DNA from: Streptomyces celluloflavus
Lineage (GTDB): Bacteria > Actinomycetota > Actinomycetes > Streptomycetales > Streptomycetaceae
Direction: 5' to 3'
Length of the DNA stretch: 64,000 bases
Assembly (NCBI GenBank): GCA_000720995.1
Contig: JOEL01000001.1
Coordinates: 310,001 to 374,000, forward strand
The position numbers were made by a program, and so were the translations under genes. The notes under the pieces are model-generated. The model had not been told where the DNA came from. It was given only the letters and a program-made list of their open reading frames with translations, and did no database searches. This document shows positions 11,924 to 57,300 of the stretch, in pieces. How positions within the stretch are numbered: the first letter of the stretch is position 1; each line of letters begins with the position of its first letter.

Positions 11924-11995
11924 CCCGCGGTGCACGACCGGCCCGGCCGCCCCGGACCCGTACCCGCCCGCCGCCGCACACCCGTGGAGGAAACC

Positions 11996-16906: not shown

Positions 16907-16978
16907 GCGCTGTGTGCCTCTCCGGAATGGCGGGGCCGGCCACCCGCTACGACAAGACACCGGACAGCTACCTCGCCG

Positions 16979-29520: not shown

Positions 29521-29576
29521 ACCGGGCGCCCGCCCCAGCCCCCGTACCCACCGCCCCGCCTTGAACGGAGACCCTC

Positions 29577-33547: not shown

Positions 33548-33621
33548 GGCGGACCCTTCGTGATCGGGGACGGAGGTCGGAGGGGCGGTGCGGCGATGCG
33601 CGTGCCGAGCCGTTCGGCGCG

Positions 33622-37603: not shown

Positions 37604-37647
37604 GGGTTCCTTCTGCCGGGGGTGGTGCGGAGTGCGGCCGGGCTGCG

Positions 37648-38472
37648 TCACCGGGCCGTGAATCCTCCGTCGACGGTCAGGACGCTGCCGGTCACCCGGC
37701 GGGAGTCGTCGCTCGCCAGCCAGAGCGCGGCGGCGGCGATATCGGCGGGCTCGATCAGATCGTTCGTGGGCTGGTCCCGGACGAAGATCTCCTCGTGCTC
37801 CTCGACGGGCACATCGAGGGAGCGGGCGATCTCGGACAGCATCCGGCCCTCCACGACGGGGTCGTCGCGCACCGATCCGGGGCACAGCGCGTTCACCCGG
37901 ACACCCAGCGGGGCGTAGTCGAGGGCCGCGGCCTTGGTGAGCCCGATCAAGCCGTGCTTGGCCGTGACGTACCCGGCGAAGTGGCGGTAGCCGACCAGTC
38001 CCGCGGTCGACGAGACATTGATGACGCTGCCCGCCCGCTGTCCCACCATGGCCGGGGCGGCGGCCTTCATCATCCGCCAGGCGCCGGACAGATCGGTGTC
38101 GAGCATGAGCGCCCATTCGGCCGCCGTGATGTCGTGGGTGACCTTTCCGGACGGCGCCGCGATGCCCGCGTTGTTGACCAGGACGTCCACGGCACCGAAC
38201 CTGTCGAGCGCCGCATCGATCACGCCCTGGCAGTCCGCGGCGTCCCGTACGTCCGCCACCTTGGCCACGACGGCACCGCCCGCCTTCTCGCACAGCGCGG
38301 CGGTGTGCGCCAACTGGCCGCGCGACCCCAGCGGGTAGGGCACTCCCGCCACGTCCTGCGCGATGTCCATCAGCAGGAGATCGGCGCCTTCCGCCGCGAA
38401 CCTGACCGCGCATGCGCGCCCGAGACCGCGCGCCGCCCCCGTGATGACGGCGGTCTTCCCGCTCAGTCGCAT
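37648..38472 (-). CDS. SDR family oxidoreductase
   Basis: 274 residues, ATG at 38472 with GAGGAG. Motifs: TGAARGLGRA, VNNAGIAA, active-site Ser in INVSSTAG, YxxxK in GYVTAKHG, and the closing VTGSVLTVDGGF. The ~25-residue insertion after the second strand (DIAQDVAGVPYPLGSRG) is typical of the mycofactocin-type SDR branch, which often keeps its cofactor bound. It is located between the free-standing NRPS protein and the type II thioesterase and probably oxidises or reduces a hydroxyl on a building block or on the product. Confidence 0.9.
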   Translation of the reverse strand: MRLSGKTAVITGAARGLGRACAVRFAAEGADLLLMDIAQDVAGVPYPLGSRGQLAHTAALCEKAGGAVVAKVADVRDAADCQGVIDAALDRFGAVDVLVNNAGIAAPSGKVTHDITAAEWALMLDTDLSGAWRMMKAAAPAMVGQRAGSVINVSSTAGLVGYRHFAGYVTAKHGLIGLTKAAALDYAPLGVRVNALCPGSVRDDPVVEGRMLSEIARSLDVPVEEHEEIFVRDQPTNDLIEPADIAAAALWLASDDSRRVTGSVLTVDGGFTAR

Positions 38473-38511
38473 CTGCTTCTCCTCTTCTCGTGCCGTCGGC
38501 GGGCCGCGCCG

Positions 38512-39210
38512 TCAGTGGGCGGCCACGGCCTGCAGCAGGACGTCGGGATGGTCGATCAGGTACATGTGTCCGCCGCGGATCTCCCGGTACGCGAACCGGT
38601 CGCGGGTGGTGGCGGACCACTCCTCCGCCTGGGTGCGCGAGACCAGCGTGTCGTCACAGCCGCGCAGCGACGTGACGGGGACGGCGAGCGGTTCGGACGA
38701 GGACGGCTCGTACGACTCGTGCATCTCCACGTCGGCGCGGAGCAGCGGCAGGAACATCTCCCGCATGTCCGGGTCCTCGAACACCTCTGACTGGTATCCG
38801 GCGAACTCCTGCACCCGGCCGAGGAATTCCTCGTCGCTCAGGCCGCTCGCCCGCTCGGCGCGGCCGTTGTGTGGTCCGGGCGAACCGCTCACGAACAGGT
38901 GCCGCAGGCCGGGGTGCCCCCGCCGGGTGAGTTCGAGCGCGATCTCGTAGGCGAGCACGGCGCCGAAGCTGTGCCCGAACAGCGCGAGAGGGGTGTCGTC
39001 GTCCGTGCCGTCCAGCACCCGGCGGGTCAGTTCCCGGACGGCCTCCGGCATATCGGTGAACGGGTCGTCGAGGAACTGTTCCTCCCTGCCCGGCAGTTGT
39101 ATCGGGACGATCTCGAACTCGACGTCGAACTGCGTCCGCCACGGGCGGTAGAAGCCGGCGCCGCTGCCTGCGAAGGGCAGGCAGACAAGAGCGAAAGGCT
39201 GATTCGCCAT
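38512..39210 (-). CDS. Type II thioesterase (RifR/GrsT family)
   Basis: 232 residues, ATG at 39210 with GAGGGGAC. Alpha/beta-hydrolase with nucleophile Ser in LFGHSFGAVLAYE near residue 95, Asp in LRGCDDTLVS near 185 and His in IRGGHMYLIDH near 215. The opening FALVCLPFAGSGAGFYRPW is diagnostic. It removes wrongly loaded or stalled groups from carrier domains of the NRPS encoded around it. Confidence 0.95.
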   Translation of the reverse strand: MANQPFALVCLPFAGSGAGFYRPWRTQFDVEFEIVPIQLPGREEQFLDDPFTDMPEAVRELTRRVLDGTDDDTPLALFGHSFGAVLAYEIALELTRRGHPGLRHLFVSGSPGPHNGRAERASGLSDEEFLGRVQEFAGYQSEVFEDPDMREMFLPLLRADVEMHESYEPSSSEPLAVPVTSLRGCDDTLVSRTQAEEWSATTRDRFAYREIRGGHMYLIDHPDVLLQAVAAH

Positions 39211-39294: not shown

Positions 39295-40602
39295 TCAGGC
39301 GTCGGTGCGGGGTGTCTCGGCGCGTTGTGGGAAGTCACGCAGGGCGCGGATCGGGCTCACCAGCAGGACCAGGTTGGCCGTCACGAGGACGCCGGCCATG
39401 ATCCAGATCGTGCCCCTGGTGCCCAGCGCCTCGCCCAGATAGCCGCCCAGCAGCGCCCCGACGGGAATCGCGCCGTAGTTGACGGTGGACGAGCTGGCCC
39501 TGACCCGGCCGAGCATCTCCGGCGGGCAGTAACTCTGCGAGAAGCTGCTGGAGATGACGTTCGCGGTGACCACCCCGCCGACCCCGAGGGCCCAGCCGAG
39601 CACGCTCACCGGCAGTGGCAGCCCGCTTCCGGCGAAGGGCAGCAGCACGATGCCCGGGGCCACCACCAGGTAGCTGAGCAGCAGACCGCGTGCGGTGCCG
39701 AACCGGCGGACGATCCGGCCGGCCGCCCACACCCCGGCCAGGCCCCCGGTACTGACGGCCGCGAACACCAACCCCACCGCGCCCCCGTCCAGGTGGACGT
39801 CGCGGACGAGGAACACGGTCTGCACGGCCTGGATCCCGTTCAGCGCCAGATTGCCCAGGGCGCCGAAACAGGCCAGCGTCCGCAGGAACGGATCGCGGAC
39901 GACGAACCGGATCCCCTCGGTGATCTCGCGCCGGATGCCGTCCCGCGCGGCCGCCGCCGGGGGCTTCTCCCGGGGTTTGATCGCGCCCAGGCAGAGCGCG
40001 GAGACCAGATAGGAGAAGGAGTCGACCAGCAGTCCGCCGACCGCCCCGAAGACCTGGGCGATGAAACCCGCCACCCCGGGACCGGCGATCTCCCCGGCCG
40101 TCTCCCCGCCCCGCAGCTTGGCGTTGGCCTCCAGCAGGTCGGGCTTGGCCACCAGCGTGGGGATGAGGGCCGCGTAGGCGGTGCTGAGGAACACCTTCGC
40201 CACGCCCACCAGTACGGCGACGACCAGGAGTTGCCCGATGGTCAGCACCCCCAGCCAGGCGGCCACCGGCACGCTGGCGAAGAGGACCAGCAGGGCCAGG
40301 TCGCTGACGAGCATCACCCGGCGGCGCGGCCACCGGTCCACCCAGGCCCCGGCGGGCAGCCCGATGAGGAGCCACGGCAGCCAGGTCAGTGCCGTCAGCA
40401 CGCCCATGGTGGCCGGGTCCGCCTTCAGGACGACGACCGCGACCAGGGACAGTGAGACGTGTCCGACGGCGGTGCCCAGGCTGCTGGTCGTCTCGCCGAT
40501 CCACAGCCGGCGGAAGTCGGCCTCGGCCCACAGTCCCCAGCGGCGCCGTACCGGCTCGCCGGTGGCCGGGGAGGCGGGCGGCGGTGTGGTGGTCCGGTTC
40601 AT
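39295..40602 (-). CDS. MFS transporter, probable product exporter
   Basis: 435 residues from ATG at 40602, just past the NRPS stop; a GTG at 40617 with GGAG is an alternative and would overlap the NRPS gene by 14 bases. Twelve membrane segments, with the MFS loop motif GLPAGAWVDRWPRRRVMLVSD between segments 2 and 3. This branch (enterobactin exporter EntS-like) is frequent in NRPS clusters. It is coupled to the giant NRPS gene, and export or self-protection is the likely role. Confidence 0.92.
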   Translation of the reverse strand: MNRTTTPPPASPATGEPVRRRWGLWAEADFRRLWIGETTSSLGTAVGHVSLSLVAVVVLKADPATMGVLTALTWLPWLLIGLPAGAWVDRWPRRRVMLVSDLALLVLFASVPVAAWLGVLTIGQLLVVAVLVGVAKVFLSTAYAALIPTLVAKPDLLEANAKLRGGETAGEIAGPGVAGFIAQVFGAVGGLLVDSFSYLVSALCLGAIKPREKPPAAAARDGIRREITEGIRFVVRDPFLRTLACFGALGNLALNGIQAVQTVFLVRDVHLDGGAVGLVFAAVSTGGLAGVWAAGRIVRRFGTARGLLLSYLVVAPGIVLLPFAGSGLPLPVSVLGWALGVGGVVTANVISSSFSQSYCPPEMLGRVRASSSTVNYGAIPVGALLGGYLGEALGTRGTIWIMAGVLVTANLVLLVSPIRALRDFPQRAETPRTDA

Positions 40603-40603
40603 G

Positions 40604-43600
40604 TCACTGCTCTCCACGGTGCTCCGTCCGGTGTGCGGCGCGGAGCTTGTCCGCGACGACGGCCCCGATCCGGGCGATCGGCTCCGGCCGGGTCAGCTCG
40701 CCGTGCGCGCAGGCGATCCGGTGCTCCTCGATCCGGCCGGTGATGTGCCCGCGCCAGGCGTCCGCGTACGGCCAGTCGCCGGGCTTGTCGAGGGTGGCGC
40801 CGAAGAAGACGGCGTCGCCCCGGTAGTGGCGGGGGGTGTGCTCGTTCAGGAGCTTGTGGTGGGTGGCGAAGACATCGGCCAGGGCGCCCGCCGCCTCGCC
40901 GAGCAGCGGCTCCAGCACGGCGAGGCCGTCCGGTGCGGCGGGGTCCAGGCCCAGTGAGGCGAGCAGCGCGGCGAACATCTCCGCGGCGTCGTCGGGCAGG
41001 ACCGGGTCGGCCGCCCCCGGGACGGCCGGGTAGCCGTCGAGGAGCGCGAGCAGGGCGACCTCTTCCCCTTCGGCCTGGAGCCGTACGGCCATCTCCTGGG
41101 CGACCGTCGCGCCGAAGGACCAGCCGAGCAGGTGGTAGGGCCCGGCGGGCTGGACCTCCTTGATCCGGCGGAGATAGTCCTCGGCCATCTCCCCGACACT
41201 CTCCGGGGCCTGCCCCGTCAGGCCGCTCGCCTGGAGGCCGTAGACCGGGTGCGCGGCGTCGACGGCCCGCAGCAGACCCGAGTAGACCCAGCTGATGCCG
41301 GCGGCGGGATGCACACAGAACAGCGGCGGGCGCGTGCCGCGCGAGCGCAGCGGCAGGAGCACGTCCAGGGCGTCGTGCGAGGTCTTCGCGCCGAGCCGGC
41401 CGGACAGTTCGGCCACCGTCGGGGACTCGAAGACGGTCCGGATGCTCAGTTCGGCCCCCAGCACCGAGCGCACCCGGCTGAGCAGCGTGGTGGCCAGCAG
41501 TGAGTGGCCGCCCAGGTCGAAGAAGCTGTCGTCGATGCCCACATCGGGCACGCCGAGCACATCCGCGAACAGTCCGCACAGCACCTCCTCCAGGGGGGTG
41601 CGCGGACCGCGCCCCGGGGACGGCGCCGCGTAGTCGGGTGCCGGCAGCGCCGTGCGGTCCAGCTTCCCGTTCGGGTTCAGCGGCAGGGCGTCCAGGACGA
41701 CCACCGCGGACGGGACCATATAGGCGGGCAGCGCGGCCGTGCAGAAGCGGCGCAGCTCGGTGCCGTCGGGGGCATCCGACGGATCTTCTCCGACCACGTA
41801 CGCCACCAGGCGGATGTCGCCCGGGGTGTCCTCCCGCGCCATCACCACCGCCTGGGCGACCTCCGCACGGCCCGTCAGGGCGGTCTCGATCTCACCCGGT
41901 TCGATCCGGAAGCCGCGCACCTTCACCTGGTGGTCGGTCCGGCCCAGGCACTCCAGCTCGCCGTCCCGCCGCCAACGCGCCAGGTCCCCGGTGCGGTACA
42001 TCCGGGCCCCGGCCGTGAACGGGCAGGCCACGAACCGCTCGGCGGTCAGCCCGGCGCGGCCGAGGTAGCCCCGGGCCAGGCCCTCGCCCGAGAGGTACAG
42101 CTCGCCGGTGACGCCTTCCGGAACCGGGTTCAGGTCCCGGTCGAGGACATAGGCGCGGGTGTTGAGGAGGGGGCGGCCGATGGCCGGCGGGCCGGCCGCG
42201 CCGAGCCGGGCCGCCGTGGACCACACCGTGGTCTCCGTCGGCCCGTACAGATTGGTCACCTCGCTGCCCCACCGGTGCAGTTCGGCGGCGAGCGCCGGCG
42301 GCAGGGCCTCGGCGCCGACGAGCATCCGCAGCCCGCGGACCGCTTCGGGCCGCTCAGAGAGCAGGGCGTGCCACAGGCTCGGCGTCGCCTGGACGACGGT
42401 GACCGCGGCCCGCTCGATCAGCGCGGCGAGCGCCGCCGGATCGCGCACCGTGTCGTCGTCGGCGACGACCGCCGCGGCGCCCGTGACCAGCGGCAGATAG
42501 ATCTCCGGGACGGCCATGTCGAAGGCCGGTGTGGTGGCGGCGAGCAGCCGGTCGCCCTCGTCCAGCGGCACCTGCCCGGCCAGGGAGACCAGGAGGTTGC
42601 GCAGACCGCCATGGGTGACGACCACGCCCTTGGGGGCGCCGGTCGAGCCGGATGTGTAGATCACGTAGGCGGCGTGCCCGCGGGTCACCGGCACGGGGGC
42701 CGACGGCCGCTCGCCGTGGTCGCCGGCCGCGTCGATCCGCACCACCGGGCAGTCCGCGGCCGGCCGGTCGGCCCGGCCGTCGGTCAGCATCAGCACCGGT
42801 GCGGCCTCGTCCAGGATCGCCGCGATCCGCTGCGCGGGATGCCGCGGATCCAGCGGTACGTACGCCGCTCCCGTGCCGAGCACCGCGAGGACGGCGACGT
42901 AGAAGTCCGCGGACCGGGGCAGCGCGATCGCCACGAGGCGTTCGGGGGCGGCGCCCGCCGCGGCGAGGCGCCCGGCGAGCCGCGCTGCGCGGGCGTCCAG
43001 CTCCCCGTAGGTGAGGACGGTGTCCCCGTCGATCACCACGGGCGCACCGGGCGTGCGGGCCGCCCGCTGCCGTACCAGGTCGGGCAGGGAGACGAACGGT
43101 ACGGCGTGATCGGTGTCGTTCCGGTCGCGGAGCAGGCGGCGGCGGTCGGCGTCCGAGAGGAGGCCGAGGGTGGCGAGGGGAGCGTCGGGTGCCCGGACCA
43201 CGGCGGCCAGCAGGCGCCCCAGCGCGTCCGTCATCCGAGCGGCCGTCTCGCCGTCGAAGAGGTCGGTGGCGTATTCGAGTCCGCCCTCGATCCCCGCGGG
43301 CCGGCCTTCGGCGTCCCGCTGTTCGCCGATGCCGAACAGCAAGTCGAACTTGGCGACGCCGTCCTGCGACACGGGCGCGAACTCGGCGTCCAGGCCCGGG
43401 AATTCGAGGGTCGCCTCGGCGGTGTTGTTGTAGGCGAACATCACCTGGAACAGCGGGTGCCGGGCCAGCGAACGGGCCGGGTTCAGCTCCTCCACCAGCC
43501 GTTCGAAGGGGACGTCCTGATGGGCGAGGGCGGCCAGGTTCATGGCCCGCACCCGGCCCAGCAGCTCGTGGAAGCTCGGGCGTCCCGACAGGTCGACCCG

Positions 43601-46600
43601 GAGCACCAGGGTGTTGGCGAAGAACCCGACGAGCTCGTCGAGGGCCTCGTCCGTGCGGCCCGCGGCCGGGGAGCCGATGGGAATGTCCTCACCCGCGCCG
43701 AACCTGTTCAGGAGGGCGGCGAGGGCGGCCTGGAGCACCATGAACAGGGTGACGCCGTGTTCCTGGGCCAGCTCGGTCAGCCGCAGGTGCAGCCCGGAGT
43801 CGAACGCGAACCGCGCCACCTCGCCCCGGTGGCTCGCCACCGCCGGGCGCGGCCGGTCCACGGGCAGCGACAGCTCGTCCGGAAGACCGGCCAGTGTCTC
43901 CTGCCAGAAGGCGAGTTGCCGGGCGAGCGGGCTGTCCGCGTCGCCCTCCGAGCCGAGCAGCTCCCGCTGCCACAGCGTGTAGTCCGCGTACTGCACCGGG
44001 AGCGCGTCCCACTCGGGCGCCCGGCCCAGGCAGCGGGCGCCGTACGCCTGCGCCAGGTCCCGCAGCAGCGGGCGCAGCGACCAGCCGTCGCTCGCGACGT
44101 GGTGCAGCACCAGGACGAGGACGTGCTCCGCGGGAGCGTCGCCCGGCAGGACGTAGCCGTGGACCGGCAGTTCGGTGGCGAGGTCGAAGACGTGCCCGAC
44201 CACCTCGGACACCGGGCGGTCGCAGACGGTGACGAGGCGCCCCGTCGGGCCGGCCGTGACGTGCTGCCGGGGGACGCCCTCGTGGACGGGGAAGACGGTG
44301 CGCAGGGCCTCGTGCCGCAGCACCACGTCGCCGAGCGCGCGCTCCAGCGCCGCCACGTCCAGGGCGCCGCGCAGCCGGACGCCGAGGGGAATGTTGTACG
44401 TCGCGCTCGGGCCCTCGACCTGGCCGATGAACCAGAGCCGCTGCTGGGCGTAGGAGAGCGGCAGTATCTCCGGGCGGGGCCGGGCGGTCAGGGCCGGCCG
44501 GCTGGAGGCGCCGGCCAGGCGGGCGCTCAGCCCGGCCGGGGTCGGCGTCCGGAACAGGTCCGTGATGCCCAGCTCGACGCCCAGCGCCGCCCGCACCCGG
44601 CTCACCACACGGGTGGCCAGCAGGGAGTGGCCGCCGAGCGCGAAGAAGTCGTCGTCGATGGTGACCGCGTCGACACCGAGCAGCTCACCGAACAGCTCGC
44701 ACAGCAGCCGTTCCTGGGGCGTCCGCGGTGCGCGGCCCCGCTGGTCGGCCGTGTGCACCGGTGCGGGCAGCGCCTTGCGGTCCACCTTCCCGTTCGGGTT
44801 CAGCGGCAGGGCGTCCAGGACGACCACGGCGGACGGCACCATGTACGCGGGCAGTGAGGCGGTGGCGAACCAGCCCAGTTCCGCGGCCAGTTCGGGGTGA
44901 TCCCCGGCCGGGGTGCAGTACGCCACGAGCCGGCGGTCACCGGCGATGTCCTCCCGGGCGACGACGAGGACCTGGCCGACGCCCGCGCAGCGGGCGAGCA
45001 CCGCCTCGATCTCGCCGGGTTCGATCCGGAACCCGCGCAGCTTGACCTGGTGATCGGTGCGGCCCAGATACTCCACGGTGCCGTCGCCGCGCAGCCGGCA
45101 CCGGTCACCCGTGCGGTACATGCGCTCGCCGGTGCCGAAGGGACTGGCCACGAACCGCTCGGCGGTCAGCACGGAGCGCCGCCAGTAGCCGCGGGCCAGC
45201 CCGGCGCCCGCCACGTACAGTTCCCCGGGCGCGCCGACCGGGACCGGGCGCAGACGGCCGTCCAGGACGTACGCCCGCATATTGTCCAGCGGGCGCCCGA
45301 TCGGCACCCGCGCGCCCGCCACATCCGCGGCGGACAGCAGATGGTGCGTGGCGAAGGTGGTGGTCTCCGTCGGGCCGTACCCGTTGGCGAGACGCAGGTC
45401 CGGACAGGCCGCGAGGACGCGGCGGAGCATGACGGGCGAGCCGGCGTCGCCGCCGGTGGTCACCGCGCGCAGGCCCGCGAAGGTGTGCGGACTCTCCTCC
45501 GCGACGACGTCGAACAGGCCCTTGGTGAGCCACAGCGCGGTGACCGCGTGGCGCTCCACCACGGCGCGCAGCCCCGCGGGGTCGAGCGCACCGGGCGGTG
45601 CCACCACGACGGTGCCGCCCGAGAGCAGCGGCACCCACAGCTCGTAGGTGGCCGCGTCGAAGGCCATCGGCGAGTGCAGCAGCACCCGGCGGTGGTCCCC
45701 GCCGCGCCACCGGCGGTCACCGGCCAGGGCGACCACATCGCGGTGGCGGACCGCCACCCCCTTGGGCAGCCCGGTCGAACCGGAGGTGTACATCACGTAG
45801 GCCAGTTGGCCGGGGTGTATGCGGACGGCGGGGGCGGCGGCGCCGGACGGTTCGTCCGCCGGGCGGATCACCCGCGCGCGGTGCGGGAAGTCCACCTCGG
45901 TCCGGTCGGTGATCAGGAGGCGGGCGTCGCTGTCCTCGATCACCCAGGACATCCGCTCGGGCGGCAGCCCGGTGTGCAGCGGCACATACGCCGCGCCCGC
46001 CCTGGCGACCGCCAGCGTGGCCACCACGGCGTCCACCGACCGCTCCAGGAGCAGCGCCACCCGGGTCTCCGCCGTGGCGCCGGCCGCCAGCAGACGGTGC
46101 GCGAGGCGGCCGGCCCGCGCGTCGAGCTCCGCGTACGTCAGGGCGGCGCCGTCCGCGGCGACGGCGACCGCGTCGGGGGTGCGCGCCGCCTGCTCCGCGA
46201 ACGCCTGCGGCAGCGAGATGGCGGGCGCCGCCACCGCGGTGTCGTTCCAGTCGACGAGGAGGCGTGCGCGCTCCTCGTCGCCGAGCGCGTCCAGCTCCCC
46301 GATGGCGGTGCCGGGGGTGCTCGCCGCGGCCGACAGCAGGCGGGCGAGCACGGCCGCCATGGACTCCACCGTGTCCCGGTCGAAGAGGTCCACCGCGAAG
46401 TCGATCGAGCAGTCGATGCCCGCCGGACCGTCGGGGCCGTACGACTCCTCCATGACGAAGGTGAGGTCGAACTTGGCGCCGCCGGTGTCGCTCGGCTCCG
46501 ACGAGGTCTCCAGGCCCGCGAGGTCCAGTTCGGCCTGCTCGTTGTTCTGCAGCACCAGCATCACCTGGACGAGCGGGTGGCGCGCCAGGGAGCGGACCGG

Positions 46601-49600
46601 GTTGATCTCCTCCACCAGCCGCTCGAACGGCACGTCCTGGTGGGCGTACGCGGCGAGGTCGCTCTCGCGGATCCGGGCCAGCAGCTCGCCGAACGTGGGG
46701 TCGCCCGAGGTATCGGTGCGCAGTACGAGGGTGTTGACGAAGAAGCCGACCAGATCGTCGAGGAGTTGCTCCGAGCGGCCGGCCACCACCGCCCCGATCG
46801 GTATGTCCTCGCCCGCGCCCCAGCGGGACAGCAGCGCCGCGACACCCGCCTGCACCACCATGAACAAGGTCACCTGATGGGTGCGTGCCACGTCGAGCAG
46901 GGCGGCGTGCAGCCGCGCGTCCAGGGGCATCATGACGCGCTCCGCCCGGACGCAGGGCACGGTGCCGCGCGGCCGGTCGAACGGCAGCTCCAGCTCCTCC
47001 GGCAGCCCGGCGAGGGCCTTGCGCCAGTGGGTCAGCTGGCGTGCGTACAGGCTGCGGGGGTCCGCTTCGTCACCGAGCAGCTCCCGCTGCCACAGGGTGT
47101 AGTCGGCGTACTGCACCGGCAGCGGGGCCCAGTCGGGGGCGTGGCCCGCGCGGCGGGCGGCGTAGGCCCGCGCGAGGTCGCGCATCAGGGGGCCCAGCGA
47201 CCAGCCGTCGCTCACGATGTGGTGCAGGACGAGCAGCAGTACATGATCGTCGGGGGCGGTCTCCAGGACGGTGACGCGCAGCGGCAGATCGGCGGCGAGG
47301 TCGAACGGCCGCCGCGACGCCGCGTTCACCAGAGCCTCGGCCTCCTCCCCGCGGCACCGCACGGCCTCGACCACCGAGGGCGCCTCGGCGGCCGCCAGCA
47401 CCAGCTGGCAGGGCGCGCCGTCGATCTCCCTGATGACGGTGCGCAGGGTCTCGTGCCGGGCGAGGAGGTCGGCGACCGCCGCCGTCAGCGCCTCCCGGTC
47501 GAGCGGGCCGCGCAGCCGCAGCGCGACCGGCACGTTGTAGTAGGCGCCCGCGCCCTGCATCCGGTCGATCAGCCACAGGCGCTGCTGGGCGAAGGACAGC
47601 GGCATGGCGTCCGGCCGGGTCCGGGCGGCCAGCACGGGCCGGGTGCTCTTCTCCGTGTCCAGCTGCCGGACGAGCCCGGCGACGGTGGGATCCTCGAAGA
47701 AGGCCCGGATGCGGATATCGGCGCCGGTCACCGAGCGCACCCGGGCCAGCAGCCGGGTCGCCAGCAGGGAGTGGCCGCCCAGCTCGAAGAAGTTGTCCTG
47801 GACGCCGACCGTGTCGCGTCCCAGGAGGTCGGCGAAGAGCCGGCCCACCACGGCCTCCTCGCGCAGCGCCTCCTGCCGCGCCCCGTCTCCCGGCGACTCG
47901 GCGGAGCGCGGGCGGCCGGGCGCGGGCAGCGCGGCGTGGTCGAGCTCGTGGTCCGTGGTGCGCGGCAGCCGGTCGAGGACCACCACCTGCGGGACCAGAT
48001 AGCCGGGCAGCGACCCGGCCGCGAACCGGCGCAGTTCCGCGGCCAGTTCGGGCCGCTCCCCGGCAGGGGTGCAGTACGCGACCAGGCGCCGGTCTCCCGG
48101 GCCGTCCTCGCGGACGACCACCACGGCCTGCCCGACCCCGTCGTACCGGCCCAGGACCGCCTCGATCTCCCCGGGCTCGACGCGGCAGCCGGCGATCTCG
48201 GCCCGCTCGTCCGCCCGGCCGAGGTGTTCCAGGACACCGTCCGCGCGCCGGCGCGCCAGGTCACCGGTGCGGTACATGCGCTCGCCCGGCATGAACGGGC
48301 AGGGCACGAAACGCTCCGCGGTCGGGCCCGGCCGGTTGAGGTGACCGCGGGCCAGGCCCGCGCCCGCCACGTACAGTTCGCCGACGACCCCGGGCGCGAC
48401 CGGTTCGAGGCGCGCGTCCAGGACGTACCCGCGGAGGTGGCCGAGGGGGCGGCCGATCGGCACCCGGCCGGTGGCCGATTCCTGGGCCGACAGGGCGTGG
48501 GCGGTGGCGGCCGTGGCGTGCCCGGCCGGGCCGTAGAGGTGGTGCAGTACGAGGTCCGGGTGGGCCGCGAGGGCGCGCCGCACGGCGGCCGCCGACGCCC
48601 GGCCGCCACCGGTGGCCAGCGTGCGCAGTCCGGTGAACGCCTCCGGGCACTCCTCGGCGACCTGGTCGAAGAGGCCCTTGGTGAGGAAGAGCGCGGTGAC
48701 CGCGTGGCGCTGCAGCACGGCGCGCAGCCCCGCGGGGCCGGGCGCACCGGCCGGTGCCACCACGACCGTGCCGCCCGAGAGCAGCGGCACCCACAGCTCG
48801 TAGATGGCCGCGTCGAGGGTCTGCGGCGAGTGCAGCAGCACACGGTCCGGGGCCGTGCCGCGCCACCGGCGGTCGGTCGCGAACGCGGCCACGTCACGGT
48901 GGCACACGGCCACCCCCGCGGGCCCGTCCGCCGGGTCGGCGGGATACCTCAGGTACGCGAGCTGATCCGGATGGACCGCAACGGCGGGATCGGTGGCCTC
49001 CCCGGACCGGCCGTCGCCCGGCCGGACCACCCGTACGCCGCCGGGTACGGCACCGGGCGCGCGGTCGGTGAACAGCACGGCGGCGCCGGCGTCCTCCATC
49101 ACCCGGGCCGCCCGGTCCGCGGGCAGACCGGGGTGCAGCGGCACACAGACACCGCCGGCCTTGAGGATCGCCAGGGTGGCGGCCACGGCGTCCGCCGACG
49201 GCTCCACGAGCAGCGCCACCGGGGTCTCCGGTCCGACGCCGAGGCCGGTCAGATGGTGCGCGAGCCGGTTCGCCCGCGCGTCGAGCTCCGCGTAGGTGAG
49301 GGTGTCCTCGCCCGCGACGGCGAGGGCGTCGGGGGTGCGTGCCGCCTGGTCCGCGAACGCCCGGGGCAGGGACACGGCGGCCGCGGCGCCGTTCCCCCCG
49401 GAGAGGAGCCGTGACCGCTCCGCCGCCCCGAGCACATCGATCCGCCCGACGGGCAGACCCGGGTCCGCGGCGGCCGCGGACAGCAGGCGGGCCAGCCGCA
49501 CCGTCAGCGCCTCGACCGTGTCGCGGTCGAACAGGTCGGCCGCGTACTCGACGCTGCCCGTGATGCCCGCGGGCGCGCCGTCGGCGTCGAACGCCTCCGC

Positions 49601-50758
49601 CAGGCCGATGTTGAGGTCGAACTTGGCGACCCGCATCCCGATCGGCTCCGGGCAGGTGTCGAGGCCGGGCAGGTCGAGACCGGTCTCCGCGGTGTCCTGG
49701 AGGACCAGCATCACCTGGAACAGCGGGTGCCGGGCCAGCGACCGCACCGGGTTCACCTCTTCGACCAGCCGCTCGAAGGGGATCTCCGCGTGGGCGTGCG
49801 CCTCCAGCTGGGTCTCGCGGACCCGGGCCAGCAGCTCGGTGAACGTGGGGTCGCCCGAGGTGTCGGTGCGCAGCACCAGGGTGTTGACGAAGAATCCGAC
49901 GACGTCGTGCAGCGCGTCGTCGGAGCGCCCGGCGACCACCGTGCCGAGCGGGACGTCGGTGCCCGCGCCCAGCCGGGTCAGCAGGGCGGCGAGGCCCGCC
50001 TGCAGCACCATGAACAGGGTGGCCCGGTGCGCCCGCGCCACATCGAGGAGTGCGGCGTGCAGGTCCGCGTCGAAGCGGAGCCCGACCGCGTCGGCGCAGG
50101 CTCCCTGTACCGGCGGCCGGGGGCGGTCCGCCGGCAGCGTCACCTCCTGGGGCGTCCCGCTCAGGTGGTCGCGCCAGTACGCCAGCTCCCGGGAGAGCAC
50201 GCTGTGCGGATCGGTGTCGCTGCCCAGCAACTCCCGCTGCCACAGGGCGTAGTCCGCGTACTGCACCGGCAGTGGGGACCAGTCGGGGGAGCGGCCGGCG
50301 TGCCGCGCCGTGCAGGCGGCGGCCAGGTCGCGCAGGAACAGCCCCTGCGACCAGCCGTCCCCCGCGATGTGGTGCACCACCACCAGCAGGACGTGCTCCT
50401 GGGGGGCGAGCGCGAAGACCGTCATGCGCAGGGGCAGTTCCCCGCCCAGGTCGAAGTGGTGCGCCGCGGCCGCGTCGCGCAGCGCCGGAAACTCGTCCGG
50501 ACCGCAGCGGACCGTCTCGAAGTGCAGCCGGGTCTCCGCGGCCGGTACGACCTGCTGTACGGGGACGCCGTCGACCGCGGGGAACACGGTGCGCAGCGCC
50601 TCGTGCCGGATGACGACGTCGCGCGCGGCGTCCCGCAGCGCGGCCTCGTCCAGGGGTCCGCGCATCCGGATCGCGAACGGCAGGTTGTACCGCGGGCTCG
50701 GACCGTCGAGCTGGTCGGCCAGCCAGAGGCGCTGCTGCGCAAACGAAACCGGAATCAC
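40604..50758 (-). CDS. Tri-modular NRPS with a dead first A domain: C-A(inactive)-T-C-A-T-C-A-T-TE
   Basis: 3384 residues from GTG at 50758 (AAGGAAAGGA upstream). C domains near 1-440, 1055-1490 and 2105-2540 have HHIAGDG, HHIVSDG and HHVASDG. A1 (~465-960) has lost its working motifs: the P-loop reads [12 protein letters not shown]5 YGPAGHA, and the A10 lysine is gone ([11 protein letters not shown]). A2 (~1510-2000) and A3 (~2560-3050) are intact, with pocket codes DAYWTGGTFK (Val-like) and DMPQLGLVWK (Gly-like). Carriers with LGGHSLLAT are near 994, 2043 and 3080. The terminal thioesterase has GWSFGATVA near 3212 and a His in CAHGELTRP. It terminates the line, releasing the peptide by hydrolysis or cyclisation. 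Confidence 0.96.
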
Positions 50759-50956: not shown

Positions 50957-51169
50957 TCACCGTCCGCCGAGGGCGGCGATCAGACTGGCCGGGCGGATAT
51001 CGGTCCAGTTCTCCTCGATGTGGTCGAGGCAGCCCTGCCGGGTGTCCTCCTCGTGCGCCACCGACCAGCCGGCCGGCACATCGAGCCAGGACGGCCAGAG
51101 GGAGTGCTGGTTCTCCTCGTTGACCAGGACCAGGTACCGCGCGTTCTCGTCCTCGAACGGGTTCGTCAC
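50957..51169 (-). CDS. MbtH-like protein
   Basis: 70 residues. Small protein that binds A domains and is needed for their folding or activity. The family tryptophans and core are present: NPFEDENARYLVLVNEENQ, SLWPSWLDVPAGW, and the closing NWTDIRPASL. It lies between the P450 and the giant NRPS, with 168- and 198-base gaps that hold no other gene. Confidence 0.96.
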   Translation of the reverse strand: MTNPFEDENARYLVLVNEENQHSLWPSWLDVPAGWSVAHEEDTRQGCLDHIEENWTDIRPASLIAALGGR

Positions 51170-51337: not shown

Positions 51338-52519
51338 TCAGCCGGTGACCAGGCGCACGGGGAAATGGTCGAGGCCGAAATTGATGATGGAGCCGTTGTG
51401 GCGCAGCGGCCCCGTCGGCCGGATCTCCGTCACACGGCGCAGCATCGCGGAGAACAGCCCCTCCAGCTCCGCCTTGGCCAGCGGCGCCCCGATGCAGTAG
51501 TGCGCCCCCAGGCCCAGCGCCAGGTGTTTGTTGGGCGAGCGGTCCAGGATGATGTCGTGCGGGCGGTCGAAGGCCGCCGCGTCGTGGTTGGCGGCCCAGG
51601 TCCAGACGACGACCCGTTCGCCGCGCCGGATCAGCTGTCCGCCCAGCTCGGTGTCCCGGCTCGCGGTGCGCAGCGTGTGCAGGCCGACCGAGGTCCAGCG
51701 CAGCAGCTCGTCGAGCGCGGCCCCGATCTCCGCCTCCCCGTCGCGCAACTGCCGCCACAGCTCGGGGTGCTGGACCAGCGCCAGCAGACCCATGGCCGCC
51801 GTGTGCCGGACGGTCTGCACACCGCCGACGACGATGTTGTCCAGGTTGAGGACGACGTCCTCCACCGGCATCGGCCGCCCCTGGACCCGGTAGGTGGCCA
51901 CCTTGCTGATCAGATCGTCGCCGGGGTCGGCCCGGCGCAGCAGGACCTGCTGGAACAGGTACGGCAGCAGCCGCTGGTGGCCCGCCCGGCGCTCCTCGGG
52001 GGTGCGGCACAGGAAGGCGTCGTCGCAGACCCGGACCACCATGTCCCGGTCCTCGTCCGGGATTTCGAGCAGATCGCACATGACGGCGAGCGGCAGCGCG
52101 GCGACGGTGTCCACCAGGTCCACCTCGCCGCGGGCGACCGCCTCGGCGACGAGGGAGTCCGCCAGCTCGGCGATACTGCGGGAGGCGTTGCGGACGCCAC
52201 CGGACGAGAAGAACGGCGTGGCCGGCGCCCGGAGGTCACGGTGGCGGGGCGGATCGGTCAGGGCCATCATCCGGCCCGAGCCGACCGGTGTCCGGCCCTC
52301 GCCGCTGCCCAGCAGCGACCCGCCCTCCGAGCTGTAGACGGCGGTGTTCCGCAGGACCTCGGCGGCCAGTTCGTACGAGAGCACCGACCAGACGGGGCCG
52401 TCGTCGGCCGTCTCGGTGCGCTGCACCGGGGACTTCGCCCGCAGTGCGTCGATGACGGCGGGCAGGTCGGGGCGTGACCACAGGCCCGGATCCGTGAGAT
52501 CGGTCATCGTGCTGAGCAC
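51338..52519 (-). CDS. Cytochrome P450, probable beta-hydroxylase of a carrier-bound amino acid
   Basis: 393 residues from GTG at 52519, with GGGAG 5 bases upstream. Heme loop is LGLGAHYCIGAPLA with the Cys ligand near residue 342; ExxR is in DELLRWTSV. The I-helix oxygen-activation motif reads VVGGVQTVRHT, with Gln where P450s have Asp or Glu before Thr. The gene follows a stand-alone A-T didomain gene by 25 bases. That pairing is the known arrangement of NikP1/NikQ-type systems in which a P450 hydroxylates a carrier-bound amino acid. By position the substrate would be the Gln-like residue of that didomain. Confidence 0.93.
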   Translation of the reverse strand: MLSTMTDLTDPGLWSRPDLPAVIDALRAKSPVQRTETADDGPVWSVLSYELAAEVLRNTAVYSSEGGSLLGSGEGRTPVGSGRMMALTDPPRHRDLRAPATPFFSSGGVRNASRSIAELADSLVAEAVARGEVDLVDTVAALPLAVMCDLLEIPDEDRDMVVRVCDDAFLCRTPEERRAGHQRLLPYLFQQVLLRRADPGDDLISKVATYRVQGRPMPVEDVVLNLDNIVVGGVQTVRHTAAMGLLALVQHPELWRQLRDGEAEIGAALDELLRWTSVGLHTLRTASRDTELGGQLIRRGERVVVWTWAANHDAAAFDRPHDIILDRSPNKHLALGLGAHYCIGAPLAKAELEGLFSAMLRRVTEIRPTGPLRHNGSIINFGLDHFPVRLVTG

Positions 52520-52544
52520 GGCAGCTCCCTTGCGTGGGTGGGGC

Positions 52545-54329
52545 TCATCGGGCGGTTCTGTCGCGGGCGACCAGGGCCGGTCGGCCGACCGGCCCCGCCT
52601 GGGTCCGTTCGCGCACCGCGCGGGTGAAACCGGCGAGGTCGTCGGCGTCGAGCAGGTGGCGCAACTGGAGGTCGATGTCGAGGGTGCGGCGCAGCTTGTG
52701 GACGACGCGCAACGCGGCGAGCGAATGGCCGCCGAGCGACAGGAAGTTGTCGGTCTGCGCGACGGAGGCGACCCCGAGCACCGTGCGCCACTCCTGGGCG
52801 ACCCGCTCCTGGAGCGCGTCGCCCTGCGGCGCCCCGGACCCGGCGGCCGCGGGGGCCGCGACGGCCGGTGCGGGCAGGGCCGCGTAGTCGGTCTTGCCGT
52901 TGGGGGTGAGCGGCAGGCCGTCGAGGACGGTCAGGGTGTGCGGGACCAGGTGCGCCGGCAGTTGCGCGCGCAGCGCGGCCAGCACGGCGGGGCCGCCCGC
53001 CGCGGCCGGGCCGGTGACGTACGCGGCGATGCGCAGGTCCCCGGGGGCCGCCTCGCGCACGGTGACGGCGGCCGCGGTCACCTCGGGGCGGCGGGCGAGG
53101 ACGGACTCGATCTCGCCGAGTTCGATCCGGTGGCCGAGCACCTTGACCTGCCGGTCGACGCGGCCGGCGAACTCCAGCAGCCCGTCGGCGCCCCGGCGGG
53201 CCCGGTCCCCGGTGCGGTACATGCGGCCGCCGGCCGGCCCGTCCGGGTCGGCGACGAAGCATGCCGCGGTCAGCCCCGGACGGTGCAGATAGCCGTGGGC
53301 GAGGCGGGGCCCGGCGAGGTACAGCTCACCGGTGACCCCGTCGGGCACCGGCCGGAGCCCGTCGTCCAGGAGGCGCAGCCGCACACCGGGCAGCGGGTCG
53401 CCGAGGTGGGGGCGGGGCCCGGTGATCGCGGCGACCGTGGCGTCCACGGTGCACTCGGTGGGGCCGTAGAGGTTGACGGCGTCGGCGCCGCCGTCGGCGA
53501 GCTCCCGCCAGGTCCGCTCGGGGACCGGTTCGCCCCCCATGAACAGCCGCACCTGGCGCCCGGTGAGCGTTTCGCGCAGCAGTTCCCAGTGCGACGGCGT
53601 CAGGTCCAGGTCGGTGACGCCGGTCGCGTCGAGGACGGCCGCCAGCGCGGCGGGGTCGGCGCGCTGCTCGTCGCCGATGAGTACCACCGTGTCGCCGCGG
53701 CAGACGCGGGCCCACTGCTGGACCGAGGCGTCGAAGGACATGCTCGCGTTCCAGCCGACGACCGAGGGCCCGGCGCGGTAGACGCCGCGCTCCTCCAGCC
53801 CGGCGACGAGGTCCGCGACACCGCCGCGGGTGAGTTCGACGCCCTTGGGCACACCGGTGGACCCGGAGGTGTAGATGACATACGCGGGATCCCGCGGGTC
53901 CGGCTCCGCCGCCGGGCGGGGCGCGGCGGCGGCGTCCGGGCCGAGCACCGGGACCCCCGGCCGCGGTGGCGCGGCGCCGTCCGCGCCGATCAGCAGGGCG
54001 ATCCGGGCGTCCTCGGCCATGAGGGCGAGCCGGGCCGGGGGATAGGCGGGGTCGAGCGGGACATAGGCGGCGCCCGCCCGCCACACCGCGAGCAGCGCGA
54101 CCACCAGGTCCGCGGTGCGGGGCAGTTGGACCCCGACCCGGTCCCCGCGGCCGATGCCGTGCGCGTGCAGTGCGGCCGCGAGGCCCGCCGTGCGGCGGTC
54201 GAGTTCGGCGAAGGTCAGCTCGGTGCCGCCGGCCCGGACGGCCGGGCGGCCCGGGGCGGTCCGGACCGCTCGGGCGAAGCGGGCCAGCAGGTCGACGGGG
54301 CGCCGGTCGGCGCCGGTCGGGGCGGTCAT
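52545..54329 (-). CDS. Stand-alone NRPS A-T didomain (Gln-like specificity)
   Basis: 594 residues. The A domain (~20-500) has all motifs ([43 protein letters not shown]). By-eye pocket residues are DAQDFGLVDK, very close to published glutamine codes. The carrier has FLSLGGHSLAALRV near 535. It overlaps the previous NRPS stop by 4 bases and precedes the P450. It either completes the module begun by the C domain at the end of the preceding NRPS, or serves the P450 as a hydroxylation platform, or both. Confidence 0.94.
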   Translation of the reverse strand: MTAPTGADRRPVDLLARFARAVRTAPGRPAVRAGGTELTFAELDRRTAGLAAALHAHGIGRGDRVGVQLPRTADLVVALLAVWRAGAAYVPLDPAYPPARLALMAEDARIALLIGADGAAPPRPGVPVLGPDAAAAPRPAAEPDPRDPAYVIYTSGSTGVPKGVELTRGGVADLVAGLEERGVYRAGPSVVGWNASMSFDASVQQWARVCRGDTVVLIGDEQRADPAALAAVLDATGVTDLDLTPSHWELLRETLTGRQVRLFMGGEPVPERTWRELADGGADAVNLYGPTECTVDATVAAITGPRPHLGDPLPGVRLRLLDDGLRPVPDGVTGELYLAGPRLAHGYLHRPGLTAACFVADPDGPAGGRMYRTGDRARRGADGLLEFAGRVDRQVKVLGHRIELGEIESVLARRPEVTAAAVTVREAAPGDLRIAAYVTGPAAAGGPAVLAALRAQLPAHLVPHTLTVLDGLPLTPNGKTDYAALPAPAVAAPAAAGSGAPQGDALQERVAQEWRTVLGVASVAQTDNFLSLGGHSLAALRVVHKLRRTLDIDLQLRHLLDADDLAGFTRAVRERTQAGPVGRPALVARDRTAR

Positions 54330-57300
54330 CTCGGGTTCCTCTCCTTGTCCGTGGTGTGTCCGCAGGACGCGGCCATCCGCTGGAGGGCCGCGGTGTAGGC
54401 GTCGTGGTACGCGTCGACGAGTGCGTCGGGGACCACCGACCGCTGGTGGTCCACGGCCAGCAGGACGCGTTCGGTGACCGGGTCCTGGACGAGCGAGGCG
54501 CAGAAGGTGAAGTTGTTCGGCTCGTGGCGCATGACGGGTTCGCAGCCGATCAGCCCGTCGTCCACGATCCGCGCGGCGTCGAGCTGGCCGAGCGCGTGGA
54601 AGCGCAGATAGGCGAACTGGCCGTCGAGGCGGGTGCTGGTCATCATGCGGGCGAGCCGTGCGAAGGGCACCCGCCGGTGCGGCATCATGTCCAGCTCCTC
54701 GTGGTGCACGGCGCGCACCAGCGCGAGCGGGTCGTCCCCGGCCACCTCGCAGGTCAGCGGCACGGTGTTGAGGAACAGGCCGTAGGTGTCCGTGCCGCCG
54801 AGCCGCTCCAGGCGGCCGTTCACGGTCAGTCCGGTGGTGACCCGGTCCCGTGCGGTGATCTGCCCCAGCGCCCTCATGTGCGCGGCGAGCGCCACCGCCT
54901 TGACCGGCACCCCGGCCGCGTCGGCGGCCCGGCGCAGCTGTCCGGGCGCCTGCGGCAGCACCCGCTGGACGGTGCGCGGCAGTTCGGGGTGGTCGGGGAC
55001 TGCGTCCCACAACTCACCGCTGACACCGCGGAGTTTGCCCCGCCAGTACCCGAGCGCCGCAGGATCGGCGGCGGCCCGTCCCTCCGCGGCGACGAAGTCG
55101 CGGAAGGACGACGCCGGGGGCGGGGCGGCGGCGCTGTCCGGGGCGGCGGCGAGTGCGCCGTGCCGCCGCAGCAGTTCGCTCAGGAGCGAGGTGAAGCTCC
55201 AGCCGTCGAGGATGGCGTGGTGCTCGGAGATGGTGAGGTGGAAGGCGTCGTCCGCCGTCCGCTGCACGGTGATCCGGAAGAGCGGCGGGCACAGCAGGTC
55301 GAACGGGGTCCGGCGGTGGTGCTCGAAGACGTCCAGGATCGCCTTCTGCTGCTCGTCGGCCGCCAGGTCGCGCAGATCGTCGCACTCGACCGGCGGCGCC
55401 AGCTCCGCGTGGACCAGCTGGAGCGGCTCACCGAAGCCGGCGATGTCCAGACCGGTCCGCAGGACGGGGTGGCGTGCCATCGCCTCTGCGACGCTCTGCC
55501 GGAAGGCCGGCTCGTCCCAGGCTCCGGCGATCCGGTAGCTGTTGACGTTGTGGTAGCTGTCGGTGGCGCCGGCGAGCTCCATGTGGAAGACCATGCTGAG
55601 CTGCATGGCGACCATCGGGTAGGCGTCCACCAGACCGGCCGGCAGCTCCCGCCGGTCCTCGTCCCGCACCAGGGCGAAGGGCGCGGCGTCGGCGTCGTCG
55701 TCGGTCACCGGTTGGGCCAGCGGTGCGAGGCCGGCGATGGTGGGCGCGTCGAAGATGTCGCGGAGCGAGACCTGCCAGCCCCGCTCGTGCAGGCCGCCGG
55801 CCATGTGGACGGCCCGGATCGAATCGCCGCCGAGATGGAAGAAGTTGTCGTGCACACCGACGTCGGGCACCTCCAGCACCCGCGACCAGACCGTGGCGAA
55901 GTCCCGCTCGGCCGCGGTGCGCGGCGCGACATGACCGGCCTCGGCCGGCCGGAATCCGGGGGCCGGCAGCGCCGCGCGGTCGACCTTGCCGTTGACGGTC
56001 AGCGGGAACGCGTCCAGGACGGTGCAACTGGCCGGGATCATGTAGTCGGGCAGCGTCCCGGCGAGGAACTCCCGTACCCCGTCCGGTTCCCGGCCGGTGA
56101 CATAGGCCGCCAGCCGCTGGTCGCGCACGGTGACGACGCAGGCATCCACGTCCGGGTGCCGGCCCAGCGCGTTCTCGATCTCGCCCAGTTCGATCCGGAA
56201 CCCGCGCAGCTTCACCTGGAAGTCCGCGCGCCCCAGGTATTCGAGACCCCCGTCCGGCAGCCGCCGGGCCACATCGCCGGTGCGGTACATCCGCGCCCCC
56301 GCGCGGGCGGCGTACGGATCGGCGAGGAAGCGCCCCGCGGTCAGCGAGGACCGTCCCCAGTAGCCGAGCGCCAGGCTGTCGCCGCCGATGTACAGCTCGC
56401 CGGGGACACCGGCCGGGCAGGGGCGCAGCCAGTCGTCGAGGACCATCGCCGTCAGATGCGGCATCGCCGTACCGATCAGGCTCCGCCGGAAGCCCGCACC
56501 GGATTCCTCGATATCGCAGGTGGTGACGTGGACGGTGGTCTCGGTGATGCCGTACAGGTTGCACATCCGCGCCGGGGGCCGCGGGTCGAGCCCGTACCAG
56601 CGCTCCACCACGGCCGGGTCGAGCGCCTCCCCGCCCAGCATGATCCGTTTCAGTGCGGGGAGCGCGCGCGGACGGCGCCTGAGGACGGCCTCCAGCTGCC
56701 GCAGCGCCGAGGGGGTCAGGCAGAGGAAGGAGACGCGCTCCGCGTCGAGCAGTTCGGCGAACTCCTCGGGCGAACGGCTCGTCAGATACGGCACCACCAC
56801 CAGCCGCGCGCCGTGGTGCAGGGCTCCCCAGAGCTCCCAGACCGTCCAGTCGAAGGCGAAGCTGTGGAAGAGCGTCCACACCTCGCCGGGACCGAAGCCG
56901 AAGTGACCGGCACCGGAGGCCAGCAGCCTGCTGACGTGCTCGTGGGTGACCGCCACGCCCTTGGGCCGCCCGGTGGAACCCGAGGTGAAGATGAGGTACG
57001 CGGTGTCCTGGGCCCGCACCGTTCGCGCGGGCCGCTCCGCGGGCATCCGGGCCGTATCCCCGGCCCGCGCGGCCAGGTGGAACAGTTCCCAGGGCCCCTC
57101 GGGCACCCGGTCGGGCCGGTCGGTGACCACCACGGCGACGCCCGTGTCCCCCCAGGCCGCCGCCGCCCGCCCGGCGGGCGCGGTCGGGTCCACCGGGACA
57201 TAGGCCGCACCGGCCTTGAGCACCGCGAGCACCGAGACCGGGATGTCATGGGTGCGTTCGAGCAGCAGCCCGACCCGGTCGCCGGTGCGGACACCGGCCG

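What the first reader, a model, noticed from the sequence alone, without database searches (positions are those of the whole stretch)
47850..49400. Dead adenylation domain in module 1 of the terminal NRPS
Compared with its sister A2 (same length, closely similar), A1 has replaced the P-loop [10 protein letters not shown] by [10 protein letters not shown], lost the YGPTE glutamate and the A10 lysine, yet keeps the fold and an intact carrier behind it. The losses fall in exactly the catalytic motifs, in an open frame. The module must be skipped, or its carrier loaded in trans.
Basis: seen in the sequence. Interest (0 to 1): 0.75.

Follow-up and report, generated by a model that had tools for sequence, protein, structure and literature searches.

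The report
Dead peptide-synthetase domain with likely stand-in
One loading domain of a bacterial peptide-making enzyme has lost its catalytic residues but kept its shape, and a neighbouring gene trio of a recurrent type probably loads threonine in its place, which may show how loader-less modules of such enzymes arise.

Summary
The first adenylation domain (A1) of the 3384-residue terminal NRPS (40604-50758, minus) has lost the P-loop, the A5 glutamate, A8 residues and the A10 lysine in an open frame; C1, T1, C2 and A2 read as intact. The loss is focused: 13 of 32 near-invariant catalytic-motif sites changed against 4 of 51 others. Loading in trans is favoured over skipping. Just past the exporter gene lies a trio: type II thioesterase, SDR, and a stand-alone A-T protein with an N-terminal extension and threonine-type pocket (34712-39210). 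In 20 of 20 other loci with that extension the same trio recurs; 13 of the 20 also hold a module with missing, truncated or dead A domain, against 1 of 25 relatives of the window's cluster, which lack the trio beside it. The link was strong in the first 13 loci (11) and weak in the next 7 (2). Published similar sets (WS9326A, rotihibin, enduracidin) load threonine or allo-threonine into A-deficient modules. Most likely T1 is loaded this way. The extension looks like a degenerate condensation domain. Against: relative G560 has two dead A domains and no such protein. Nothing was tested at the bench.

The parts
40604..50758 (-). Terminal NRPS P0001, C1-A1(dead)-T1-C2-A2-T2-C3-A3-T3-TE, 3384 aa
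49439..50758 (-). C1 domain, HHIAGDG intact
   Evidence: approximate borders
47804..49381 (-). A1, dead adenylation domain; pocket letters DAYFAGLTA kept
   Evidence: approximate borders
48914..48946 (-). A3 (P-loop) position: [11 protein letters not shown]
48791..48817 (-). A4 position: LDAAIYELW (F to L)
48515..48535 (-). A5 position: YGPAGHA (Glu lost)
48245..48277 (-). A7: [11 protein letters not shown], intact
48176..48220 (-). A8 position: [15 protein letters not shown] (Q, K, R, F changed)
47924..47959 (-). A10 position: [12 protein letters not shown] (Gly and Lys lost)
47615..47806 (-). T1 carrier, GGHS intact: the orphan carrier
   Evidence: approximate borders
46259..47617 (-). C2 domain, HHIVSDG intact
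   Evidence: approximate borders
44729..46231 (-). A2, intact, pocket letters DAYWTGGTF (Val-like, recalled)
34712..37594 (-). P0002: N-terminal extension, A domain (pocket letters DFWSVGMVH, Thr-like, recalled), T domain; 960 aa; proposed supplier of T1
36497..37594 (-). N-terminal extension of P0002, a degenerate condensation-like domain
   Evidence: hhalign 96.8%, E 2.5e-10, 310 columns; no Pfam match, no PDB sequence match
37648..38472 (-). P0009: SDR oxidoreductase, TGAARGLG and YVTAK present; proposed Thr to allo-Thr inversion
38512..39210 (-). P0008: type II thioesterase, GHSFG; proposed aminoacyl shuttle
39295..40617 (-). P0006: MFS exporter, conserved in the cluster family
50957..51169 (-). 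MbtH-like protein, 70 aa (named by eye from its sequence)
51338..52519 (-). P0007: cytochrome P450, marker of the cluster family
52545..54329 (-). P0005: A-T protein
54326..58831 (-). P0004: C-A-T-C
58828..63495 (-). P0003: A-T-C-A-T

Best explanation
A1 cannot adenylate an amino acid (shown by sequence, not by assay). Its carrier T1 is loaded in trans by a three-gene trio in the same cluster. P0002 activates L-threonine and binds it to its own T domain (inferred from its pocket and relatives). P0009 probably inverts the beta carbon to L-allo-threonine while it is carrier-bound (inferred; proposed in print for GlobD/HmtG/WS21). The thioesterase P0008 carries the aminoacyl group to T1 (inferred from WS20, RthD and LgnA). 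C1 then adds it to the chain and C2 passes it on. A1 remains as a structural part between C1 and T1, which is why its non-catalytic invariant residues persist. The cluster would be an early stage in the making of an A-less module: trio captured, A domain dead but not yet deleted.
For: Loss focused on the motifs, 13 of 32 against 4 of 51 sites; branch of A1 on 434 non-motif columns (0.39-0.40) within the range of active relatives (A2 0.32-0.33, G514_A1 0.60-0.62, G560_A2 0.58-0.60). Of the 8 NRPS A domains in the window only A1 lacks a P-loop, so T1 is the only orphan carrier seen in the cluster. Extension found in 25 of 199 genus genomes, own included. Of 20 other loci read (13, 7), 20 of 20 have P0008 homologues (43-64%) and P0009 homologues (61-78%) beside it. 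First set: 11 of 13 loci, 12 of 45 C..T modules, hold a module without P-loop, against 1 of 25 relatives, 2 of 101 modules, and 0 of 36 modules in 12 other NRPS loci. Second set: 2 of 7 loci, 2 of 13 modules. Together 13 of 20 against 1 of 25, P about 1e-5. In G062, G180 and G183 the orphan module keeps a dead A domain. The stand-alone A domains of the first set and P0002 share NM[FY]GITETTVH (14 of 14) and FDFSVWEI (13 of 14). Published: RthB/RthD and A-less module 2 of RthA, rthB inactivation abolishing rotihibin (section heading) (PMC8552735, passages); endD deletion abolishing enduracidin, EndB module 8 without A, TEII End_25645 like WS20 (PMC13320435, passages); ramoplanin extension needed for trans-complementation (PMC8949500, section 4.1); Glob/Hmt/WS SDR plus A-T pairs (PMC9943842, passages).
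Against: G560, same genus and cluster family, has dead A domains in modules 1 and 3 and no extension protein in its genome, so A domains die in this family without the trio. The second set of trio loci alone does not show the link (2 of 7 loci, P = 0.11; 2 of 13 modules, P = 0.06); three of those loci (G628, G651, G608a) have scattered domains and no C..T module to score. In the first set G093 has 0 of 4 and G127 no C..T module; G072 and G086 rest on weak domain borders. Six relatives of the window's cluster (G651, G653, G628, G584, G608, G645) carry the extension protein elsewhere in their genomes while their own version of the cluster has no dead A domain. Orphan T domains form no clade and T1 shows no special signature. 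In globomycin the set coexists with A domains in every module (PMC9943842). The counts ignore shared ancestry. No assay, no product.
Confidence: 0.68

Rival explanations
1. A2 (intact, 61% identical to A1) loads both T1 and T2 from within the same protein, so the product carries the same residue twice, as SidD A1 does for its module 2.
For: SidD A1 loads T1 and T2 because module 2 has an inactive A domain (PMC10192304, passages). In G560 one intact A domain sits between two dead ones and no extension protein exists, which needs something of this kind or a supplier elsewhere.
Against: A1 and A2 have different pocket letters (DAYFAGLTA, DAYWTGGTF), so they are not fresh copies of one specificity; a dedicated trio is present and would then lack a visible target.
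Confidence: 0.17
2. The module is skipped: T1 stays empty or hands the chain on, and the peptide is one residue shorter.
For: A1 is dead; the relatives G641, G275 and G084 have a two-module terminal NRPS.
Against: T1, C1 and C2 keep their catalytic residues and A1 keeps 47 of 51 non-catalytic invariants, which is not expected of a bypassed module; the trio would be without a visible target.
Confidence: 0.09
3. A1 is a decaying pseudo-domain in a cluster that no longer makes its product.
For: A1 has lost motifs; dead A domains of G560 have also lost the C-terminal subdomain.
Against: The other A domains of the window have their motifs, codon-position G+C in A1 is that of coding sequence, and 47 of 51 non-catalytic invariant sites are kept.
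Confidence: 0.06

Closest known systems
WS9326A (WS20 TEII, WS21 SDR, WS22 A-T; A-less module of WS19), himastatin HmtG/HmtF, globomycin GlobC/D/E (PMC9943842 and PMC8748450 passages; PMC7539972 abstract and passages)
   Same: SDR and stand-alone threonine A-T encoded side by side, TEII in the cluster (WS9326A, globomycin); A-deficient module proposed as target (not in globomycin).
   Different: In WS9326A and himastatin the target module has no A domain; here a full-length dead A domain is present. Direct sequence comparison with these proteins was not possible.
Enduracidin EndD / ramoplanin stand-alone A-T (PMC8949500 section 4.1; PMC13320435 passages)
   Same: Stand-alone A-T with a 300-aa N-terminal extension supplying an A-deficient module; extension reported as needed in ramoplanin; TEII between endC and endD.
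   Different: EndB module 8 lacks A. The review calls the extension without substantial homology; here the family profile matches condensation domains. Whether their extension belongs to this family was not testable.
Rotihibin RthB/RthC/RthD (PMC8552735, passages)
   Same: Consecutive A-T, SDR and TEII genes; threonine into an A-less module.
   Different: A domain missing in RthA module 2.
Albicidin/cystobactamid (PMC8949500 section 4.1)
   Same: A present but inactive A domain complemented by a stand-alone A-T (albicidin).
   Different: Their A-T carries an alpha-ANH/AMDH insert and handles Asn; P0002 has no such insert and a Thr-like pocket.
Fungal SidD (PMC10192304, passages)
   Same: Carrier beside a dead A domain loaded by another A domain.
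   Different: Supplier is a neighbouring A domain of the same protein; the dead A is a truncation.

Membership tests
Thr trans-loading set (WS20-22 / RthBCD / EndD type) | Stand-alone A-T with Thr-type pocket and N-terminal extension | tested here: met
   P0002; motifs shared with 13 homologues; the Thr reading of the pocket is recalled
Thr trans-loading set (WS20-22 / RthBCD / EndD type) | TEII and SDR genes beside the A-T gene | tested here: met
   P0008, P0009; same in 20 of 20 other loci read
Thr trans-loading set (WS20-22 / RthBCD / EndD type) | A module without functional A domain in the same cluster | tested here: met
   A1 dead, but present, unlike the A-less published cases
Thr trans-loading set (WS20-22 / RthBCD / EndD type) | Homology to the named proteins | not testable with these tools
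   WS22, EndD, ramoplanin A-T, RthB and GlobE sequences not in hand
Thr trans-loading set (WS20-22 / RthBCD / EndD type) | Aminoacyl transfer to the orphan T, and loss of product on deletion | not testable with these tools
   needs bench work
Active NRPS A domain (A1) | P-loop, A5 Glu, A8 and A10 Lys motifs | tested here: not met
Albicidin/cystobactamid-type complementation | alpha-ANH/AMDH insert between A and T of the stand-alone protein | tested here: not met
   AMP-binding_C ends at 1205, T starts at 1234 of the P0002 frame
Cis supply by a neighbouring A domain (SidD type) | Neighbour A loads both carriers | not testable with these tools
   pocket letters of A1 and A2 differ
Condensation domain (for the N-extension) | Profile similarity over the domain | tested here: met
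   14-member profile 96.8%, E 2.5e-10, 310 columns; A and T profiles and 5 column shuffles 0.0-0.2%; the single sequence alone gave 1.6%
Condensation domain (for the N-extension) | HHxxxDG active site | tested here: not met
   absent in 14 of 14 extensions

The most novel reading that the evidence does not exclude
A-less NRPS modules arise stepwise: a movable threonine-loading trio is captured by a cluster, the local A domain then loses its catalytic residues while selection still holds its fold, later its parts, and finally all of it. The window is the earliest stage (525 aa between C1 and T1, motifs lost only), followed by internally deleted dead A domains (G062, G180, G183; 407-416 aa), remnants (G584 185 aa; G094 and G183 127-128 aa) and bare linkers (G018, G060, G108, G178, G193, G653; 36-71 aa). 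The supplier's N-extension is itself a worn condensation domain.
Probability: 0.38. Interest if true: 0.68.

Novelty: new variant of a known kind. Interest (0 to 1): 0.55.

Why it matters
A dead A domain that keeps its shape breaks colinear product prediction: its pocket can still be read and would predict a wrong residue. If the trio supplies T1, the window shows how split, loader-less modules may begin, and offers a natural test of whether the A-domain fold is needed between C and T. The SDR plus A-T pair is also a proposed but unproven source of L-allo-threonine, whose bacterial origin 'remains to be elucidated' according to PMC9943842 (passage), and a condensation-like identity for an extension of the kind reported as needed in ramoplanin gives a testable idea of how the supplier works.

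Tried and rejected
Close orthologue of A1: the genome-contig scan returned 18 loci, best 43% identity (the tool says that records very near the own genome may be left out), so no second strain could show whether the loss is fixed. In 295 genus genomes the 5 other matches at E 1e-150 or better were 56-61% identical; they are module-1 domains with intact motifs of the same cluster family. Shared decay of window A1 and G560 A1/A3: not supported; G560 A1/A3 are sisters (support 100) and A1 groups with G514_A1 (84-87). A1 as a fresh copy of A2: not supported by pocket letters or tree. Signature of a trans-loaded T domain: none found. N-extension as a single sequence against the C profile: no signal (1.6%). 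AlphaFold of the N-extension alone: mean pLDDT 34.5, not used. An earlier thought that all relatives lack the extension protein in their genomes is wrong: (12 of 12 negative, no positive control) was followed with two positive controls that rang; 15 of 25 relatives have none, 6 have it away from the cluster, 4 have short weak matches in long NRPS frames. regex misses (A10 and others) were resolved on the alignment. The tenth pocket letter was added by my script, not read; one search gives the nine letters and the Lys position.

Papers: searches used all ten allowed. In those listings I saw no title or abstract on the extension as condensation-like or on a full-length dead A domain with this trio; most listed papers were not read and subscription journals are largely missing. 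Passages of PMC11342130, PMC8616955, PMC8399532 and PMC9229766 gave nothing used here.

Full report
What is there. The window is part of an 8.7 Mb, 193-contig draft genome, probably a Streptomyces (inferred; no tool named it). On the minus strand it carries an NRPS cluster: P0003 (A-T-C-A-T), P0004 (C-A-T-C), P0005 (A-T), P450 P0007, an MbtH-like protein, the terminal NRPS P0001 (C-A-T x3-TE), MFS exporter P0006, then TEII P0008, SDR P0009, stand-alone A-T P0002, P0010 (unknown) and dioxygenase P0011. The domain search, run on the window plus the next 20 kb, found no NRPS gene beyond P0003.

Is A1 dead? Yes on sequence. Against 121 A domains from this and related clusters, A1 changed 13 of 32 near-invariant (95% or more) sites in A3, A5, A7, A8 and A10 and 4 of 51 elsewhere (P = 0.0006); four active domains checked the same way changed 0, 4, 1 and 2 of 83. 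The three dead domains and one partial domain (G513, second frame) were left out of the reference set. On 434 columns without the core motifs the A1 branch (0.39-0.40) lies between those of active A2 (0.32-0.33) and of active G514_A1 and G560_A2 (0.58-0.62). So catalysis was lost while the rest changed at an ordinary rate.

Where does A1 come from? It is 61% identical to A2, but its pocket letters DAYFAGLTA resemble those of G514 module 1 (DAYFHGLTA) and G622/G637 module 4 (DAYFGGLTA), whereas A2 (DAYWTGGTF) equals G275 and G084 module 1. The tree groups A1 with G514_A1 (support 84-87). The letters were read off my alignment with recalled GrsA positions; residue names for pockets are recalled.

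Related clusters. With the P450 as marker, 7 of 391 other genus genomes and 27 of 296 other genomes of the family draw have a close match; two genomes are in both. I read 27 of these 32 and left out five with 56-60% P450 identity; two of the 27 (G545, G647) end before a complete module. Of the remaining 25, the terminal NRPS has four modules in 18, two in G275, G084 and G641, three in G560 and five in G584; G513 and G645 are incomplete (G042 is spread over two frames there). 2 of their 101 C..T modules lack a P-loop, both in G560. G560 modules 1 and 3 have lost the P-loop, A5, A8 and A10 motifs and most of the C-terminal subdomain, cut at the same place, and are sisters at support 100, which suggests that a dead module was itself duplicated. 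G560 C and T domains keep HHxxxDG and GGHS.

The supplier. P0002 begins at 37594 with 366 residues that match no Pfam model and no PDB sequence, followed by an intact Thr-type A domain and a T domain. A search of 199 genus genomes with the extension found it in 25, own included. I read 13 of the 24 others; of the 11 left out, ten score lower than any that I read, and G167 was passed over. The extension heads open frames of 898-1259 aa in those 13. In 13 of 13, P0008 and P0009 homologues lie directly beside it, in the order TEII, SDR, A-T. In 11 of 13 at least one C..T module lacks a P-loop: absent, truncated or dead A. first listed 13 such modules; one (G094, TSGSTGTAKG) was a regex miss and was removed, giving 12 of 45. 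The 12 loci give 0 of 36; they were chosen by similarity to A1 and are mostly distant taxa.

A second set. To test whether relatives of the cluster lack the extension, searched 25 relatives and two positive controls, both of which rang. 15 of 25 have no match. Six (G651, G653, G628, G584, G608, G645) have the full extension, in seven places, none beside the P450-NRPS cluster (other contigs, or 231 kb and more away on the same one; G645 is a fragmented draft). Four have only short weak matches in long NRPS frames. The seven places served as a fresh test: 7 of 7 again carry TEII (47-64%) and SDR (69-78%) beside the A-T gene. An orphan module was seen in 2 of 7 (G653, no A; G584, a 185-aa remnant), 2 of 13 C..T modules. 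Three of the seven (G628, G651, G608a) have their domains on separate proteins and no module to score. Alone this set is not significant (P = 0.11 by locus, 0.06 by module); together with the first it is 13 of 20 loci against 1 of 25 (P about 1e-5), and 11 of 18 without the two weak calls G072 and G086 (P about 5e-5). Shared ancestry is ignored in all of these.

The N-extension. The profile of 14 extensions aligns over 310 columns to 137 condensation domains (hhalign 96.8%, E 2.5e-10), also without the window's row (2.7e-10); A and T profiles and five column shuffles give 0.0-0.2%. HHxxxDG is absent in 14 of 14. A Cys-His pair near the start is shared (Cys 13 of 14, His 14 of 14).

How it most likely works. 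Threonine is activated and held on P0002, possibly inverted to allo-threonine by P0009, moved by P0008 to T1, and condensed by C1. Each step is inferred from published relatives: WS20/WS22, RthD/RthB, EndD (passages), the Glob/Hmt/WS proposal, and LgnA, a TEII shown in vitro to move threonine between T domains (PMC8748450, passages). P0008 has GHSFG, GGHM and DDTLV at the places where a Ser-Asp-His triad would lie (placement recalled). PMC8837603 (one passage) gives another case where a lone A domain was predicted to serve an inactive one.

What stays open. G560 has no extension protein in its genome (controls positive) and needs another route, perhaps its single intact A domain in that NRPS. 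So A-domain death in this cluster family is not tied to the trio alone. The window's product is unknown. The finding is real, belongs to a known kind (trans-loaded modules), and differs in showing a full-length dead A domain that kept its non-catalytic invariants at the proposed receiving module.

Noticed in passing
L071 (G560), terminal NRPS at 7127-16957 minus: Dead A domains in modules 1 and 3, both without most of the C-terminal subdomain, around one intact A domain; no extension protein in the genome.
   Followed up: partly
window 33622-34596 minus (P0010): 324-aa protein without Pfam or NCBIfam match, with relatives in the G084, G275 and G641 clusters.
   Followed up: partly
window 32513-33625 minus (P0011): Clavaminate-synthase/VioC-like dioxygenase; an arginine deiminase gene at 27160-28383 plus and an amino-acid kinase family gene at 29565-30566 plus; G084 and G641 have a gene that looks like DDAH by eye near the exporter. 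Possible arginine or citrulline residue.
   Followed up: no
window 58828-63495 minus (P0003): The C domain reads HHIVWDEG where HHxxxDG is expected.
   Followed up: no
window 54326-58831 minus (P0004), last domain: The terminal C domain scores far lower than the first with my C profile (96 against 663) yet keeps HHAILDG; the ten relatives whose P0004 was read score 97-108 there.
   Followed up: no
between P0005 and P0007, window about 52519-52545: Relatives such as G042, G025 and G290 have a TEII gene here, 29-31% identical to P0008; the window has no room for one.
   Followed up: no
L126-L128, L132-L134, L138-L140 (G651, G628, G608): The trio beside NRPS domains that sit on separate proteins (lone C, A-T, T-T frames), an unusual setting for it.
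   Followed up: no
own genome C5:155172-156146 (in L037): Another low-scoring AMP-binding domain inside a 2710-aa frame (119.7 bits), not examined for motif loss.
   Followed up: no
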